Shown here in pieces: positions 51,124 through 63,516 of a DNA stretch of 64,000 nucleotides. The translations under genes were made by a program, and so were the position numbers. Source of the stretch: Clostridia bacterium (GTDB lineage: Bacteria; Bacillota; Clostridia; Peptostreptococcales; Anaerovoracaceae); assembly GCA_024403115.1 (NCBI GenBank), contig JAKSSL010000004.1, positions 1 through 64,000 of the forward strand, read 5' to 3'. Positions within the stretch are counted from its first letter, which is position 1, and every line of letters starts with the position of its first letter. The notes under the pieces were generated by a model, which was given only the letters and a program-made list of their open reading frames with translations, did not search any database and had not been told where the DNA came from.

Positions 51124-51149
51124 ATATTGGAGTCTTGAGGGAGGGAAAA

Positions 51150-52034
51150 ATGGAGAAGAATAACAAGAACAAAGGCTTTTTAATAGTGATAATGATATTA
51201 CTCATAGGGGTGATAGCTTTTTGCGCTTATAAATTGCTTGATATAGGCAAGGGATATTTAGATGATAGAAAAGCTTATACAGAAATCGTCAAGATATCCA
51301 AAATAGATGAGGGGGAAGATGTAGACTTTAAAGCTTTGGAAAAGACCAATGATGGTGTTAAAGCATGGATCTATTCTCCTAAAACAATTATCAATTACCC
51401 CGTAGTTAAAGGGGAAGATAATGATTACTATTTGAATCATAATTTTAGTAAGGATAGCGCAGCCTGCGGGGCCCTGTTTATTGACAAGGATAACAATGGG
51501 GATTTTCAAGATTTCCTTACTATAATCTATGGGCATAGAATGCGAGATGGAAGCATGTTTGCCAGTCTTGGAAACTATTTAAAGCAGGATTATTATGATA
51601 AGCATAACTATATGGTTCTAAGGACAAAGTCCAAGGCGTATAAGCTGGAACTTTTTGCAGGAAACATAATCGAGGGACATAGTGAATACTATGACTTGTC
51701 CAGATACACAAATAATGAAGTTAAAGAAGCTTTTATAAAGGAAATCGTTGATAACAGTAGTTTCAAAAGCGATGTAAGTGTAGGAGTTAATGATAGAATC
51801 GTCTGCCTTAGCACTTGCACCTACGAGATAGATAACGGCAGATATGTATTGTTTGGTAAGCTGAGCGAATTGGACGAGCCTGAATACAAGGAAGTAATCA
51901 GGTATGAAGAGCCAAGTCTTACTGAAAGCGTATCCGATGAGGTGCTGTGGATTCTGGTCGGCGCTTGCGCTGTGGTATTACTATTATTAGTTATATTAAT
52001 TAGAGCAATGGTGAAGAAGAGGTCAAGAAAGTAA
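51150..52034 (+). CDS. Class B-like sortase with N- and C-terminal membrane spans
   Basis: This membrane-bound transpeptidase would link secreted proteins to the wall. The 294-residue product has an N-terminal span (about 10-28), the catalytic His in IIYGHRMRDGSMFASLGNY, the catalytic Cys in IVCLSTCTYE and the Arg in DNGRYVLFGKL. A second hydrophobic span (about 266-286) with a basic tail is unusual for class B and recalls pilus (class C) sortases. ATG 51150 follows GGGAGGG. No sorting-signal substrate is visible in the window. Confidence 0.87.
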   Translation: MEKNNKNKGFLIVIMILLIGVIAFCAYKLLDIGKGYLDDRKAYTEIVKISKIDEGEDVDFKALEKTNDGVKAWIYSPKTIINYPVVKGEDNDYYLNHNFSKDSAACGALFIDKDNNGDFQDFLTIIYGHRMRDGSMFASLGNYLKQDYYDKHNYMVLRTKSKAYKLELFAGNIIEGHSEYYDLSRYTNNEVKEAFIKEIVDNSSFKSDVSVGVNDRIVCLSTCTYEIDNGRYVLFGKLSELDEPEYKEVIRYEEPSLTESVSDEVLWILVGACAVVLLLLVILIRAMVKKRSRK

Positions 52035-52708
52035 TGGGAGTATCAAAATTTCAATTAATTATATCTGTAGCCATAATTTTGGTGGGCGTGGCTTTAAAAA
52101 AGTATGACATGGGAACAGCTGGTACCATTGTAATTATTTGTGGCGTAGGCCTATATATCCTGTTTATACTTTTCAACAATACTATCAAAAAGGCGCAGGC
52201 TGAAGAGGCTGCCAAAATTGAGGCACAAAAATATAATCCTAACAGGGTTTTTGAAGAATATGGGCGCAAGGTTCCAGGCACAGAAATTGAGCTATTGGAT
52301 AGAGATACTGCTTTGGACAGAACGGACGAAGATTTAGCTTATGCAAAGCAATTGTACCAAGAGCATATTAGTAATATTGCAGTAATCGACGAAGACAGGG
52401 AAAGATTTAGCTTTTACCTAATAGATGATGACAAGGATGTTAATTATCTAAGCGATGAATTTTGTACAAGCGTTTGCTGGAACTGTTACGAAAAGATTAA
52501 GGAGTACAGGGAAAAGCTGAGAGAGCAGTTTGATAAGGCTGAGACTTTGCAAGCTGGCGAAGAAATGGAATACGTTTCATATATTAAGACTTATAAATAT
52601 TATGTTATATCTCTCCACCAAATGATGGAATCAATAGTGTACATGGCTGCATTATACAATGAGAAAATCAAGGAGAGGGAAGAGAGCGGAGAAGACTTTG
52701 ATGAATAG
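52034..52708 (+). CDS. Uncharacterised protein with two N-terminal membrane spans
   Basis: I do not recognise this 224-residue protein. Two spans (about 5-22 and 29-47) form a hairpin, followed by an acidic, helix-rich cytoplasmic domain of about 175 residues with CTSVCWNCYEKI in the middle. Its start is joined to the sortase stop by one base (TAATG), and it overlaps the YitT gene by 8 nt, so it is a fixed member of a sortase operon. A cytoplasmic helper role is possible but only inferred. Confidence 0.75.
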   Translation: MGVSKFQLIISVAIILVGVALKKYDMGTAGTIVIICGVGLYILFILFNNTIKKAQAEEAAKIEAQKYNPNRVFEEYGRKVPGTEIELLDRDTALDRTDEDLAYAKQLYQEHISNIAVIDEDRERFSFYLIDDDKDVNYLSDEFCTSVCWNCYEKIKEYREKLREQFDKAETLQAGEEMEYVSYIKTYKYYVISLHQMMESIVYMAALYNEKIKEREESGEDFDE

Positions 52709-56006: not shown

Positions 56007-57212
56007 TTACATAATAAAATCTATAAAGTCTAAAAAATTATTTATTTGACTATCCTCAAAGTGCTGTAATATTGGCTCTGAGAACTGATATTTATCAATT
56101 AGCTTTAGTTTCTTGTAAAGAGGACTAGTGCTAATGCTGTACTCCATCTTTAATTGATAGCTTAGCTTTTGGGAAACCACCAAGATTTGATTAGCCTTGC
56201 TCAAAAAGTATGAACCATCAAAATCCTCTGAAAGAAAATATGGGTTTTGGGATACATGGGAATTGTTTTCGTGAAAAACTAAATAATTCCTTCCGTTATT
56301 TTTCTCAATGGAATATGAGTTTCTCAAATTTGCTTTTTCAAAATCACCGATCAAGTCATCGCCCTGGTATTCATAAAGGGTAATGAACTCCGGTTTATTA
56401 AGCAGGGCAGAGTATTCTTCAAAAGCCAACTCTTTACTATCACAAATTGCGAAGGATTTAACTTTACCATTTTCAACGGCAAGCTTTGTCAAATAGAAAT
56501 AGTATATACCATCTTTTTGAAAAATGGATTCTGAATATCCCTGATCATTGATAAGGTTTTTGTAAAGAGTTCCTCCTAAGTGGAGAAACTTACTGCTGTG
56601 GGAATTAGCTTTCTCATGGAATATGGATTTAAGAGCTTCTTCACAGTTCAAACTTGATGTATCTGCCAAAAGCTCCATTCCCTCCAAATCGTTGCCGAAC
56701 AATCTCATAAGAAAATAGTTTTGCAGGGTAGTGGAGTCTTCAATTTCCACGCATGAAAGTGAGTTTAGCTTTGCTTTTGAATAGGAAGAAGTATCCGCTT
56801 TTAGATAATAGTTAAAGCTAGGGATATATGTTCTAATACCTGCATCCAATGATTTTTCAATGCATTCCTTTATAGCCCCCAAAGCTGTAGCTTCGTCCAG
56901 CTCCATTTGCCTACCACCAAGACCACTGAAAAGCTGGTGCTCCAGTTTGTCGATTTCCTCATTGCCTATTAGCAGGGAGTCGTTCATACAGTCCAGGGCA
57001 TCGCCCTCGTAATCATAGTAAAAAAGCGCCTTGTACCTATAGGAATCCTCGCCTACAAACTTTGAGTTTTCGGGTTTTGTCAGCATGTATTCTATGCAAA
57101 AGCCACACACTCCCATAAGCCTTGTATCTGTGACATAGGCCCTTAGAAACTCCTTATCATAAAGGTCTAAAGCTGTTAAATTGTCGCCTTTAATAATTTC
57201 TAATTTATTCAT
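56007..57212 (-). CDS. Uncharacterised 401-residue protein
   Basis: I do not recognise this protein. It is acidic, with no signal peptide or clear membrane span. Repeats are not evident. The N-terminal half contains GVCGFCIEYML, and the rest is mixed alpha/beta with many Tyr and Asn. An extended -10 (TGcTATAAT, 57227-57219, minus strand) lies so close that transcription would begin at about the ATG, and no ribosome site is present, which suggests a leaderless message. Orphan, monocistronic, divergent from metK. Confidence 0.7.
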   Translation of the reverse strand: MNKLEIIKGDNLTALDLYDKEFLRAYVTDTRLMGVCGFCIEYMLTKPENSKFVGEDSYRYKALFYYDYEGDALDCMNDSLLIGNEEIDKLEHQLFSGLGGRQMELDEATALGAIKECIEKSLDAGIRTYIPSFNYYLKADTSSYSKAKLNSLSCVEIEDSTTLQNYFLMRLFGNDLEGMELLADTSSLNCEEALKSIFHEKANSHSSKFLHLGGTLYKNLINDQGYSESIFQKDGIYYFYLTKLAVENGKVKSFAICDSKELAFEEYSALLNKPEFITLYEYQGDDLIGDFEKANLRNSYSIEKNNGRNYLVFHENNSHVSQNPYFLSEDFDGSYFLSKANQILVVSQKLSYQLKMEYSISTSPLYKKLKLIDKYQFSEPILQHFEDSQINNFLDFIDFIM

Positions 57213-60592: not shown

Positions 60593-60621
60593 TTGATATT
60601 TTGAGCATTTTAGTGCATAAT
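60593..60621 (+). promoter_or_regulatory. Promoter of the RluD-type synthase operon
   Basis: TTGATA (60593-60598), 17-bp spacer, CATAAT (60616-60621). The predicted start falls on about 60628, the ATG itself. Confidence 0.65.
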
Positions 60622-60627
60622 ATATTT

Positions 60628-61647
60628 ATGAGAAGTATGAGAATAGAGAGAAATGACAGCGAGCAAAGAGTTGACAGATACTTGAAAAAATACCTCGCTA
60701 ATGCCTCTCTTAGTCAGATATACAAAATAATCAGGAAGGATTTGAAGGTCAATTCCAAAAGAGTGAAGGAAAACCATATTCTTCATGAGGGAGATATTCT
60801 GGATTTGTATATAGGCGAGGATGAACTTAACAAGCTGGTGAAGGAAGAAAAGGCTTTTCATGGAGCAAAGAAACAGTTCAAGATTGTCTATGAGGATGAG
60901 AATATTATTGCCGTAAACAAACCTGCTGGCCTGCTGGTTCACGGGGACAGACAGGAGAAGAAGAATACTTTGGTAAATCAAGTCACTGATTATTTGATTG
61001 CAAAGGGCGACTACATACCTCGACTTGAGAAAACTTTTAGCCCAGCTTCGGCTAATAGAATAGATAGAAACACCAGTGGTCTGGTTATATTCGGTAAAAA
61101 CAGTATGGCTTTAAAAGCCTTAAACCGAATTATCTCAAACAAGGAAGCCGTGAAAAAGGAATACTTTGCAATAGTGGACGGAATAGTGGCACAAGAAATC
61201 TTGCTTAAGGACAGCTTTGTTAAGGACGAAGGCAGAAACCAAGTCTTTCTGGATCAAGAGGAAGGCAAGGAGATGGAGACTAGAGTAATCCCTCTATGTC
61301 ACGGAAAGAATGCCACACTTCTTAGGATAGTCTTGTTGACTGGAAGAACACATCAGATTAGAGTTCAGCTTGCTAAGGCAGGACATCCCATAATAGGCGA
61401 TCCTAAATACGGTGTAGATAAGCGTGGAAATGCTAACAGAAAAAGTTCCAGTGCAAACAAGGAAGCAAGAAATAAGGGGCAAATGCTTCACAGCTATAGC
61501 TTAGAATTTCTTTCTTGCCCTGAAGAATTGAAATATTTAGAGGAAAAACGTATAGAGGCTTTGCCTCCAGAGTATTTTATAAATGAAGTGAAAAATTTGT
61601 TTGGTCAGGAAGGTTTATCATGGATAAAAATCGTGAAGAAAAATTAG
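60628..61647 (+). CDS. RluC/RluD-family 23S rRNA pseudouridine synthase
   Basis: This 339-residue enzyme isomerises uridines in 23S rRNA. It has an N-terminal S4 RNA-binding domain (RVDRYLKKYLANASLSQIYK) and a catalytic domain with NRIDRNTSGLVIFGK, where the Asp is the nucleophile (about 143), and LLTGRTHQIRVQL. ATG 60628 sits at the predicted transcription start; ATG 60637 is an alternative. Either way the leader is very short. It overlaps the next gene by 28 nt. Confidence 0.88.
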   Translation: MRSMRIERNDSEQRVDRYLKKYLANASLSQIYKIIRKDLKVNSKRVKENHILHEGDILDLYIGEDELNKLVKEEKAFHGAKKQFKIVYEDENIIAVNKPAGLLVHGDRQEKKNTLVNQVTDYLIAKGDYIPRLEKTFSPASANRIDRNTSGLVIFGKNSMALKALNRIISNKEAVKKEYFAIVDGIVAQEILLKDSFVKDEGRNQVFLDQEEGKEMETRVIPLCHGKNATLLRIVLLTGRTHQIRVQLAKAGHPIIGDPKYGVDKRGNANRKSSSANKEARNKGQMLHSYSLEFLSCPEELKYLEEKRIEALPPEYFINEVKNLFGQEGLSWIKIVKKN

Positions 61648-62471
61648 AATTAATCAACACTTTCATAAAAGCCATTGACGCGGACGATATTTTCGATGTA
61701 GTTGAAAAACCTTTATTCAAAAAAGTTGATACTACAGGAAATGTAGTTCCAGAAGAAAGCGCTTGGGAAAGATATTTGCGTCAGCAAATGGATTTGGAAG
61801 ATAAGAAAGAAAGCGCTCGCAATGTAGAAGTAAAAGCAGAACCAATGGAACAAAAGCCAGTGGAAGCTCCAGTAGAAGAACCAAAAGTAGAAGCTGTAGC
61901 AGAGCCACCTAAGCCAGAAGAGCCAAAGAAAAAGAAAAAGAGCAAGGGCAAAGCTTGGCTAAGGGATATAATAATCGCAGTAATTATAGTGGCAGCTTTA
62001 TTGTTCTTCTTCAGACCGGTTCAAAACATTAACCAAGCCATGACTCCTAATTTTGGAGATGGTGATATTCTAATTGCGTCAAGACAAACATATAAATTGT
62101 TGGGCGGATTCCCTAGCAGAGGTGATGTTGTTGCAATTAAAACAGGCGTAGATGAAAATGGTAAGAATGAAGTCATCGTGAAGCGTGTCATTGGATTACC
62201 AGGGGAACACGTAGAAATAAAGGATGGATACGTTTACATAAATGGATCCAAGCTTAATGAGCCTTATCTTGCAAAAGAAGGGGAAACTGATGCAGGACTA
62301 GATGGTCCAAGCTTGTATCAAGTTCCAGCAGGCAAGGTATTTGTTATGGGCGACAATCGTCCTTTGAGCATAGACAGCAGAAATGCAGCAATGGGATGTA
62401 TAGATGTTGACGATATTGTAGGTCAAATATTAGTGAAGGTTTATCCTTTCAAAGAAATAAAGGTGTATTAA
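61620..62471 (+). CDS. Signal peptidase I-like protein lacking the catalytic serine
   Basis: This 283-residue protein has an N-terminal cytoplasmic region of about 110 residues rich in Glu, Pro, Val and Lys, one membrane span (about 113-131) and a signal peptidase domain. The paralogue next to it has [10 protein letters not shown]; this protein has AMTPNFGDGD, so the catalytic Ser is Ala140. The Lys is kept (Lys188 in IVKRVIGLPGE) and GDNRP is present. It should therefore be inactive as a Ser/Lys protease unless the residue is replaced in another way. It overlaps the upstream synthase by 28 nt and the intact signal peptidase by one base. Confidence 0.9.
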   Translation: MDKNREEKLELINTFIKAIDADDIFDVVEKPLFKKVDTTGNVVPEESAWERYLRQQMDLEDKKESARNVEVKAEPMEQKPVEAPVEEPKVEAVAEPPKPEEPKKKKKSKGKAWLRDIIIAVIIVAALLFFFRPVQNINQAMTPNFGDGDILIASRQTYKLLGGFPSRGDVVAIKTGVDENGKNEVIVKRVIGLPGEHVEIKDGYVYINGSKLNEPYLAKEGETDAGLDGPSLYQVPAGKVFVMGDNRPLSIDSRNAAMGCIDVDDIVGQILVKVYPFKEIKVY

Positions 62472-63055
62472 TGGGTATTAAAGAGAAAATCGAAAATATG
62501 AGTCCAAAGACTAAGAAGGAAATAAAATCCTGGGCAGTAGATATAGCTATAGCTGTAGTTTTAGCCCTGCTCGTATTGGCTTTTATAAAGCCGACTTCAG
62601 TTAATGGACCATCAATGGAACCCACTTTTGAGGATGGAGATTATCTGTTCATATCAAGACAGAGCTATGGACTTTTCGGTGGCGTGCCTGAGAGGGGAGA
62701 TGTGGTTATAGCTAAGTCACATCTAAGCGACGTTGAAACGAATAGCACTAATATTAATATTATAAAGAGAGTTATTGGGGTTCCGGGAGACACAGTGGCT
62801 TTAAAAGAAGGATACGTATACGTTAACGGCGAGAAATTGGAAGAAGCTTATCTTGGCGATCAAGGACAAAGCTACGGAGAATTCGCAGACAACCAAACAT
62901 ACAAGGTCCCTGAAAATTGTGTCTTTCTAATGGGAGATAATAGAATTGTAAGTGAGGATAGCCGCTTTGAAGATGTGGGCTACGTTCCATATGACAATAT
63001 CATTGGACGAGTTATCTTGAGAGTATTTCCTTTCAACAAAATGGCAACTTATTAG
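62471..63055 (+). CDS. lepB: Signal peptidase I
   Basis: This membrane protease removes signal peptides from exported proteins. The 194-residue product has one N-terminal span (about 22-40), the catalytic Ser48 in [12 protein letters not shown], the catalytic Lys99 in [11 protein letters not shown] and the box E motif MGDNR with SEDSR. The length is normal for the Gram-positive type. Its start is joined by one base (TAATG) to the Ser-less paralogue, so the two are made together. Confidence 0.95.
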
Positions 63056-63063
63056 GTGAAACT

Positions 63064-63516
63064 TTGGGAAGAAAAATTATAGCTAACAATAAAAAAGCGA
63101 GACATGATTATTTTATAGAAGATACCTATGAGGCAGGTCTAGCTCTTAAAGGAACAGAGATCAAATCCATCAGACAGGGTAGAGTGAATCTTAAGGAAAG
63201 CTTTGCCAAGGTGGAAAATGAGGAGGTCTTTGTTTATGGTATGCACATCAGCCCCTATGAACAGGGAAACCGTTTTAACCATGATCCTTTAAGACCAAAG
63301 AAACTGTTGCTCCACAAAAGGGAGATTAGAAAACTCATCGGTCTTTGCGCCCAAGATGGGTTTACCTTGGTACCATTGAGCGTGTACCTAGATGATAGGG
63401 GCAGAGCGAAAATGGAGTTGGCTGTAGCCCGCGGAAAGCACAATTACGATAAGAGAAAGACTATTGCCAAGAGAGATTCTGATAGAAAAATAGACAGAAT
63501 TTTAAAACAACACTAG
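63064..63516 (+). CDS. smpB: SsrA-binding protein SmpB
   Basis: SmpB delivers tmRNA to stalled ribosomes. The 150-residue product has the family motifs [30 protein letters not shown] and [10 protein letters not shown]. The start is TTG at 63064 with AGGTGA 5 nt upstream. The gene is the last of the operon starting at 60.6 kb. Its RNA partner ssrA is 8.4 kb away in the opposite orientation. Confidence 0.95.

What the first reader, a model, noticed from the sequence alone, without database searches (positions are those of the whole stretch)
61620..63055. Tandem signal peptidases, one with the catalytic serine replaced by alanine
The first of two adjacent signal peptidase I genes has AMTPNFGDGD where the second has [10 protein letters not shown], so the Ser nucleophile is Ala140. 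Lys188 and the GDNR box are kept, so the fold is probably intact. It also has an extra N-terminal cytoplasmic region of about 110 residues. The two genes share one base of overlap, so they are produced together. This suggests a pseudoenzyme that binds signal peptides or regulates the active LepB, rather than a decayed copy, since the reading frame is fully open.
Basis: partly seen in the sequence, partly recalled or inferred. Interest (0 to 1): 0.65.

Follow-up and report, generated by a model that had tools for sequence, protein, structure and literature searches.

The report
Dead signal peptidase beside active one
This small-genome bacterium makes, from one overlapping gene pair, an active signal peptidase (the enzyme that trims exported proteins) and a look-alike that has lost its cutting residue, and related bacteria have evolved such uncutting partners about ten separate times at the same spot, which suggests the dead copies do a job.

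Summary
ORF A (61620-62471, 283 aa) is a full S26 signal peptidase I domain with Ala140 (GCC, 62037-62039) in place of the Ser nucleophile; Lys188, GDNR and DSR are kept. ORF B (62471-63055) has Ser48/Lys99. They overlap by one base in an operon-like row rluD-like/A/B/smpB. A keeps 20 of 21 columns near-invariant in active relatives, but has Asn136 where all 187 active relatives compared have Val/Ile/Leu, the residue bridging the S1 and S3 pockets. So A is not just a one-base-broken enzyme, and its usual signal-peptide pocket is altered. Its first ~70 residues have no credible homologue in 350 family genomes. The one same-genus genome has a single active copy here.

In 140 such loci (47 genera), 65 carry tandem copies and 30 carry a copy lacking Ser or Lys, about 10 independent losses; an intact copy always remains (one locus is cut by a contig end). 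A clade of mostly Ala-nucleophile copies in six genera looks to be under purifying selection.

Best reading: a maintained pseudo-signal-peptidase partner of LepB, comparable to staphylococcal SpsA and streptococcal SipA but not a proven orthologue of either. Its role is inferred, not shown.

The parts
60601..61647 (+). RluD-like RNA pseudouridine synthase, upstream gene of the conserved locus; its end overlaps A by 28 bases
   Evidence: PF00849 101.6 bits; the same neighbour is seen in most loci surveyed
61620..62471 (+). ORF A: pseudo-signal peptidase I, 283 aa, nucleophile Ser replaced by Ala140
   Evidence: PF10502 and TIGR02227 above cut-off; alignment; AlphaFold2 model with SpsB and SipA among the best PDB matches
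61620..61934 (+). N-terminal cytoplasmic region of A (residues 1-105): predicted helices 3-20, 22-28 and 48-72, then a Pro/Glu/Lys-rich linker
   Evidence: AlphaFold2 secondary structure (low to medium pLDDT, no homologues in the alignment for this part); residues 1-70 have no credible match in 350 family genomes
62025..62027 (+). Asn136 codon, the S1/S3 bridge position (Ile32 in SpsB)
   Evidence: 187 of 187 active relatives have Val, Ile or Leu; pocket role from PMC4704075
62037..62039 (+). GCC = Ala140 where active enzymes have the Ser nucleophile
62181..62183 (+). Lys188, general-base position, retained
62471..63055 (+). ORF B: active-type signal peptidase I (LepB), 194 aa, Ser48/Lys99
   Evidence: PF10502 145.5 bits; all 21 near-invariant columns kept; the only P-type copy in the genome with the Ser/Lys dyad
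63064..63516 (+). smpB, downstream gene of the conserved locus
   Evidence: PF01668 211 bits

Best explanation
A is a maintained pseudoenzyme: a membrane-anchored protein with the signal peptidase I fold that cannot cleave because the Ser nucleophile is Ala and whose S1/S3 pocket bridge is now Asn. It is translated from the same message as the active LepB (B), with an overlapping stop and start, and most likely works as a non-cleaving partner or scaffold of B. It would sit in the membrane beside it, with an orphan cytoplasmic tail of about 105 residues, and tune B's activity or its supply of clients rather than act as a general signal-peptide trap. Shown by sequence: fold, loss of nucleophile, altered pocket strand, gene overlap, one Ser/Lys P-type enzyme in the genome, recurrence of dead tandem copies in the family. 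Inferred: lack of activity, contact with B, and the regulatory or scaffold role.
For: Full S26 domain with Ala140. 20 of 21 near-invariant columns kept, the nucleophile the only departure. Remodelled strand around the nucleophile, P = 7e-4, Asn136 never seen in 187 active copies. Codon adaptation 0.62 (0.56-0.69) against 0.52 (0.44-0.61) for B and 0.45 (0.39-0.51) for the gene upstream, which argues against a decaying gene. One-base overlap and a plausible ribosome-binding site. In the family 30 of 140 loci, in 14 genera, have a copy lacking Ser or Lys beside an intact copy; no complete locus has lost the intact copy. About 10 separate losses on the tree. The clade of seven dead copies, six of them Ala-type, spans six genera, and its same-genus pair has dN/dS about 0.06 at dS about 2.6. 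A polar or small residue at the S1/S3 bridge occurs only in dead copies (10 of 29 against 0 of 188, P = 4e-10, rows not independent).
Against: No orthologue of A was found, so purifying selection on A itself is untested and it may be confined to one lineage. Lys188 and the rest of the site are intact, unlike most older dead copies, which also fits a recent loss. Physical contact with B, expression and lack of activity are not shown. Most dS values used for the related clades are near saturation.
Confidence: 0.52

Rival explanations
1. A is a duplicate signal peptidase that lost its nucleophile recently and is on the way to being lost; it has no function now.
For: Lys188 and all other near-invariant residues still stand, whereas the full-span dead copies of related genera depart at 3-17 of the 21 columns and most have lost Lys. 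Only one genome has A; the same-genus genome has a single copy. Duplication at this locus is frequent (65 of 140 loci).
Against: The binding strand has changed in step with the nucleophile, so more than one hit has occurred with the frame intact. Codon adaptation is as good as B's. A/B divergence is already large (44% identity, dS saturated), so A has been kept for long. Small genome (1.08 Mb).
Confidence: 0.25
2. A works like S. pyogenes SipA: a dead signal peptidase that helps a class B sortase assemble or anchor surface proteins.
For: The genome's only sortase is class B (TIGR03064, 202 bits, cut-off 154) at 51135-52034 in the same window; the same-genus genome, which lacks A, has no sortase match. 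SipA is among the best structural matches of A. SipA is needed for pilus assembly with a class B sortase (PMC4049620).
Against: Sortases are in 295 of 350 family genomes, so presence beside a dead copy (28 of 30) is not informative (P = 0.13). No LPXTG-anchor match over the cut-off in the genome (this model would not see all class B substrates). No pilin gene was recognised beside the pair. The sortase lies about 9.6 kb away among unrelated genes.
Confidence: 0.12
3. A is a natural signal-peptide trap, equivalent to the S36A mutant of SpsB: it holds signal peptides without cutting and so delays or stores exported proteins.
For: Only the nucleophile is lost among near-invariant columns and Lys and GDNR are kept. 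The laboratory S36A form of SpsB keeps the fold (PMC4704075).
Against: Asn136 replaces the aliphatic bridge between S1 and S3 found in every active relative; by position, Tyr30, Ile32 and Asp74 of SpsB correspond to Val134, Asn136 and Val185. Peptide complexes in that paper were made with the wild-type enzyme, and SipA showed no peptide binding in vitro.
Confidence: 0.08
4. The Ala codon is a sequencing or assembly error in a draft genome, and A is an ordinary second signal peptidase.
For: One base (GCC versus TCC) separates Ala from Ser; the window is in a 50-contig assembly and no second strain was found.
Against: Neighbouring residues 136, 137, 138 and 142 are also outside the range of active copies; the Ala nucleophile recurs in other genomes at the same locus (L064, L176, L178, L179, L194, L213, L147).
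Confidence: 0.03

Closest known systems
Staphylococcus aureus SpsA (with SpsB)
   Same: Two type I signal peptidase homologues; SpsA lacks catalytic residues and is dispensable, SpsB is essential (PMC12445088, PMC2721850). From memory, spsA lies next to and before spsB, the order seen here.
   Different: SpsA lacks two catalytic residues; A keeps Lys188 and the whole of box E. A has an orphan N-terminal region. No evidence of orthology; the locus here is rluD-like/lep/smpB. Function of SpsA is unknown.
Streptococcus pyogenes SipA
   Same: Signal peptidase fold without catalytic residues, membrane-associated (PMC4049620); among the top Foldseek matches of A (4n31, E 6e-8).
   Different: SipA has Asp and Gly for Ser and Lys, lies in a pilus gene cluster and keeps the peptide cleft. 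A keeps Lys, has an altered pocket bridge, has no pilin neighbours, and no SipA was among its sequence matches in the PDB.
Dead tandem copies at the same locus in this family (e.g. L064, L178, L194; L016, L021; L007-L012)
   Same: S26 paralogues without Ser and/or Lys beside an intact copy between rluD-like and smpB; three of them also share Asn at the bridge and Ala at the nucleophile.
   Different: They lost Lys in most cases, many the GDNR part too, and have no long N-terminal region. The tree neither joins A to the Ala-type clade nor excludes it (AU p = 0.53).
iRhom pseudoproteases (analogy only)
   Same: Membrane proteases that lost catalytic residues and regulate clients or active relatives (PMC3149277, PMC6451368).
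   Different: Rhomboid fold, animals; no homology.

Membership tests
Peptidase_S26 / signal peptidase I fold | Match above the curated cut-off over the whole domain | tested here: met
   PF10502 125 bits (cut-off 22.9), TIGR02227 123 bits (cut-off 47); Foldseek best matches SpsB and SipA
Active signal peptidase I | Ser nucleophile in the S-M-x-P box | tested here: not met
   Ala140
Active signal peptidase I | Lys general base | tested here: met
   Lys188 aligned with B Lys99
Active signal peptidase I | Aliphatic S1/S3 pocket bridge (Ile32 and Val76 in SpsB) | tested here: not met
   Val187 kept, but Asn136 replaces Ile/Val (roles from PMC4704075)
Active signal peptidase I | Cleavage of signal peptides | not testable with these tools
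   needs an assay
SpsA of staphylococci | Lacks two catalytic residues | tested here: not met
   only the nucleophile is lost in A; definition from PMC12445088
SpsA of staphylococci | Beside an active P-type signal peptidase | tested here: met
   B overlaps A by one base; that spsA adjoins spsB is from memory
SipA of streptococci | Encoded in a pilus gene cluster with pilins and a class B sortase | tested here: not met
   neighbours are rluD-like and smpB; class B sortase about 9.6 kb away, no anchor-motif match over cut-off
SipA of streptococci | Ser and Lys replaced (Asp, Gly), cleft conserved | tested here: not met
   Lys188 kept, bridge residue changed
Ala-type dead clade of this family (L061, L064, L176, L178, L179, L194, L213) | Common descent | tested here: inconclusive
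   AU test does not reject A with the clade (p 0.53) nor A with B (p 0.36); no excess of shared derived residues beyond Asn136/Ala140

The most novel reading that the evidence does not exclude
Bacteria of this family repeatedly evolve a two-subunit signal peptidase at the rluD-like/lep/smpB locus: a catalytic LepB plus a co-translated dead paralogue that is a working subunit, a bacterial parallel to the multi-subunit eukaryotic signal peptidase complex.
Probability: 0.17. Interest if true: 0.78.

Novelty: new variant of a known kind. Interest (0 to 1): 0.5.

Why it matters
The dead signal peptidases described in the papers found here come from two Gram-positive pathogens, and how they act is unexplained. 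If the recurrence found here holds, one family offers about ten parallel cases, each with its intact partner next door, for asking why a cell keeps a signal peptidase that does not cut and whether bacterial signal peptidase can work as a heteromer. Signal peptidase I is an antibiotic target, so a natural partner or modulator would be of practical interest.

Tried and rejected
(1) Close orthologues of A by protein search in genus, family and order genomes and in GTDB contigs: none; best relatives are active copies at up to 52% identity. (2) dN/dS of A: not possible, A-B and A-L005 synonymous sites are saturated. (3) Placing A by tree: AU tests reject nothing. (4) A as a member of the Ala-type dead clade: shared Asn136/Ala140 is suggestive, but no excess of other shared residues. 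(5) Sortase link: present in own genome and absent in the same-genus one, but too common in the family to mean anything. (6) N-terminal region as a known domain: no Pfam match over cut-off and one marginal, unconvincing hit among 350 genomes (E 0.009). (7) N-terminal extension as a mark of the dead copy: rejected, active copies in other genera also have long tails (up to about 167 residues before Ser in L036 and L069). (9) A Biophys J paper on S. aureus signal peptidase dynamics is not held.

Full report
What is there. The window holds, in this order on the + strand, an RluD-like pseudouridine synthase (60601-61647), ORF A (61620-62471), ORF B (62471-63055) and smpB (63064-63516). A and B are both complete signal peptidase I domains. 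The genome (1.08 Mb, 50 contigs, 97% complete) has one further, distant S26 protein of the SipW/ER-like kind, below the Pfam cut-off (L003), so B is the only P-type copy found with the Ser/Lys dyad.

Relatives. In the one other genome of the genus (G001, locus L005/L214) the same place holds a single active copy. Searches in 350 family genomes, 394 genomes of the order and GTDB contigs found no close orthologue of A; its best relatives are active copies at 51-52% identity.

The locus in the family. I scored every S26 copy at this locus in 140 genomes, the window's included (47 genera). The rluD-like/lep/smpB order is widely conserved. Of 140 loci, 65 hold two to four copies, and 30, in 14 genera, hold at least one copy without Ser or Lys (one doubtful hit, L058, is left out). 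In no complete locus is the intact copy missing; the apparent exception, L033, is cut by the contig end. On a tree built without the two catalytic columns the loss needs 10 changes, again leaving out L058 and the cut copy of L033. Two dead groups are old: seven full-length copies in six genera, six of them with Ala at the nucleophile (L061, L064, L176, L178, L179, L194, L213), and twelve truncated copies following the active one in three genera. dN/dS is about 0.06 for the g19 pair of the first group and 0.14-0.43 among the g75 members of the second, against 0.01-0.05 for the active copies of g75; dS is high throughout, so these values are rough. The survey was chosen by similarity to A and is not a random sample.

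A compared with active copies. Twenty-one columns are at least 95% conserved in 188 active copies; A departs at one, the nucleophile. The dead copies in related genera depart at 3 to 17. Taken alone this would suggest a very recent loss. But the strand just before the nucleophile has changed as well: Asn136 stands where 187 active copies have Val, Ile or Leu, and residues 137, 138 and 142 are also outside the usual range; 5 of A's 16 rare residues, the Ala included, fall in these 8 columns (P = 7e-4), and no active copy has more than 3. In SpsB the residue equivalent by position to 136 is Ile32, which with Val76 bridges the S1 and S3 pockets that hold the Ala-X-Ala of the signal peptide (PMC4704075). 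Across the set a non-aliphatic residue there is found in 10 of 29 dead and 0 of 188 active copies (related rows are not independent). So A has probably lost canonical substrate recognition along with catalysis, which argues against a sequencing error and against a simple signal-peptide trap.

Is A decaying? Its frame is open, and its codon adaptation (0.62, 95% 0.56-0.69, measured against metK, fba and two rnf genes) is at least that of B (0.52, 0.44-0.61) and above the gene upstream (0.45, 0.39-0.51). A and B are 44% identical with saturated synonymous sites, so if they arose by duplication it was long ago. Direct evidence of selection on A is missing because there is no orthologue.

Structure. 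AlphaFold2 with 33 sequences gives mean pLDDT 78, with the S26 part mostly at 80-95, helices at 3-20, 22-28 and 48-72, a low-confidence linker and the membrane helix 106-130. The best solved structures are S. aureus SpsB, S. pyogenes SipA and other signal peptidases. Residues 1-70 have no credible match in 350 family genomes; long tails as such also occur on active copies.

Function. Established by sequence: fold, missing nucleophile, altered pocket, overlap with the only P-type active enzyme, and recurrence in relatives. Inferred: that A is inactive, that it meets B in the membrane, and that it modulates B or presents clients. A SipA-like role with the genome's single class B sortase (51135-52034) is possible: the same-genus genome lacks both. 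But sortases are in 295 of 350 family genomes, so the link is not informative.

Known systems. S. aureus SpsA lacks two catalytic residues and is dispensable (PMC12445088, PMC2721850); SipA has Asp and Gly for Ser and Lys and is essential for pilus assembly (PMC4049620). A resembles both in kind but fails defining features of each: Lys is kept, and there is no pilus gene cluster. I therefore call it a new variant of a known kind. The repeated origin of dead copies at one locus is the more unusual result; seven library searches showed no report of it in the titles and abstracts listed, but the library lacks most subscription journals.

Noticed in passing
window 51135-52034: The genome's only sortase match, a class B sortase (TIGR03064 202 bits), followed directly by a 224-aa protein (52034-52708) without an NCBIfam match; the same-genus genome G001 has no sortase match.
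   Followed up: partly
L007, L008, L009, L010, L011, L012, L022, L025, L028, L033, L062, L156: A clade of truncated (about 120-160 aa) S26 copies follows the active signal peptidase in genera g17, g61 and g75; Lys is replaced by Arg (Gly in L009) and the GDNR part is missing.
   Followed up: partly
L016, L021, L147 (genus g76): In genus g76 up to three signal peptidase copies stand in tandem; the third keeps Ser in some species and has Gly in L016 and L021, and L147 has an Ala-type copy, a natural series of nucleophile loss.
   Followed up: partly
L149, L158, L170 (genus g54): Tandem copies that keep the Ser nucleophile but have Ser in place of the general-base Lys.
   Followed up: no
L003 282-770 (G000 contig 9): A SipW/ER-like S26 protein of 162 aa with SGSMEP and a VTHRI motif, i.e. 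apparently a Ser/His type, below the Pfam cut-off.
   Followed up: no
L036, L069 (genus g16), L055 (g66), L060 (g34): Active signal peptidases with long, low-complexity N-terminal tails (about 130-167 residues before the Ser), of unknown role.
   Followed up: no
window 56007-57212 (- strand): A 401-aa ORF without an NCBIfam match.
   Followed up: no
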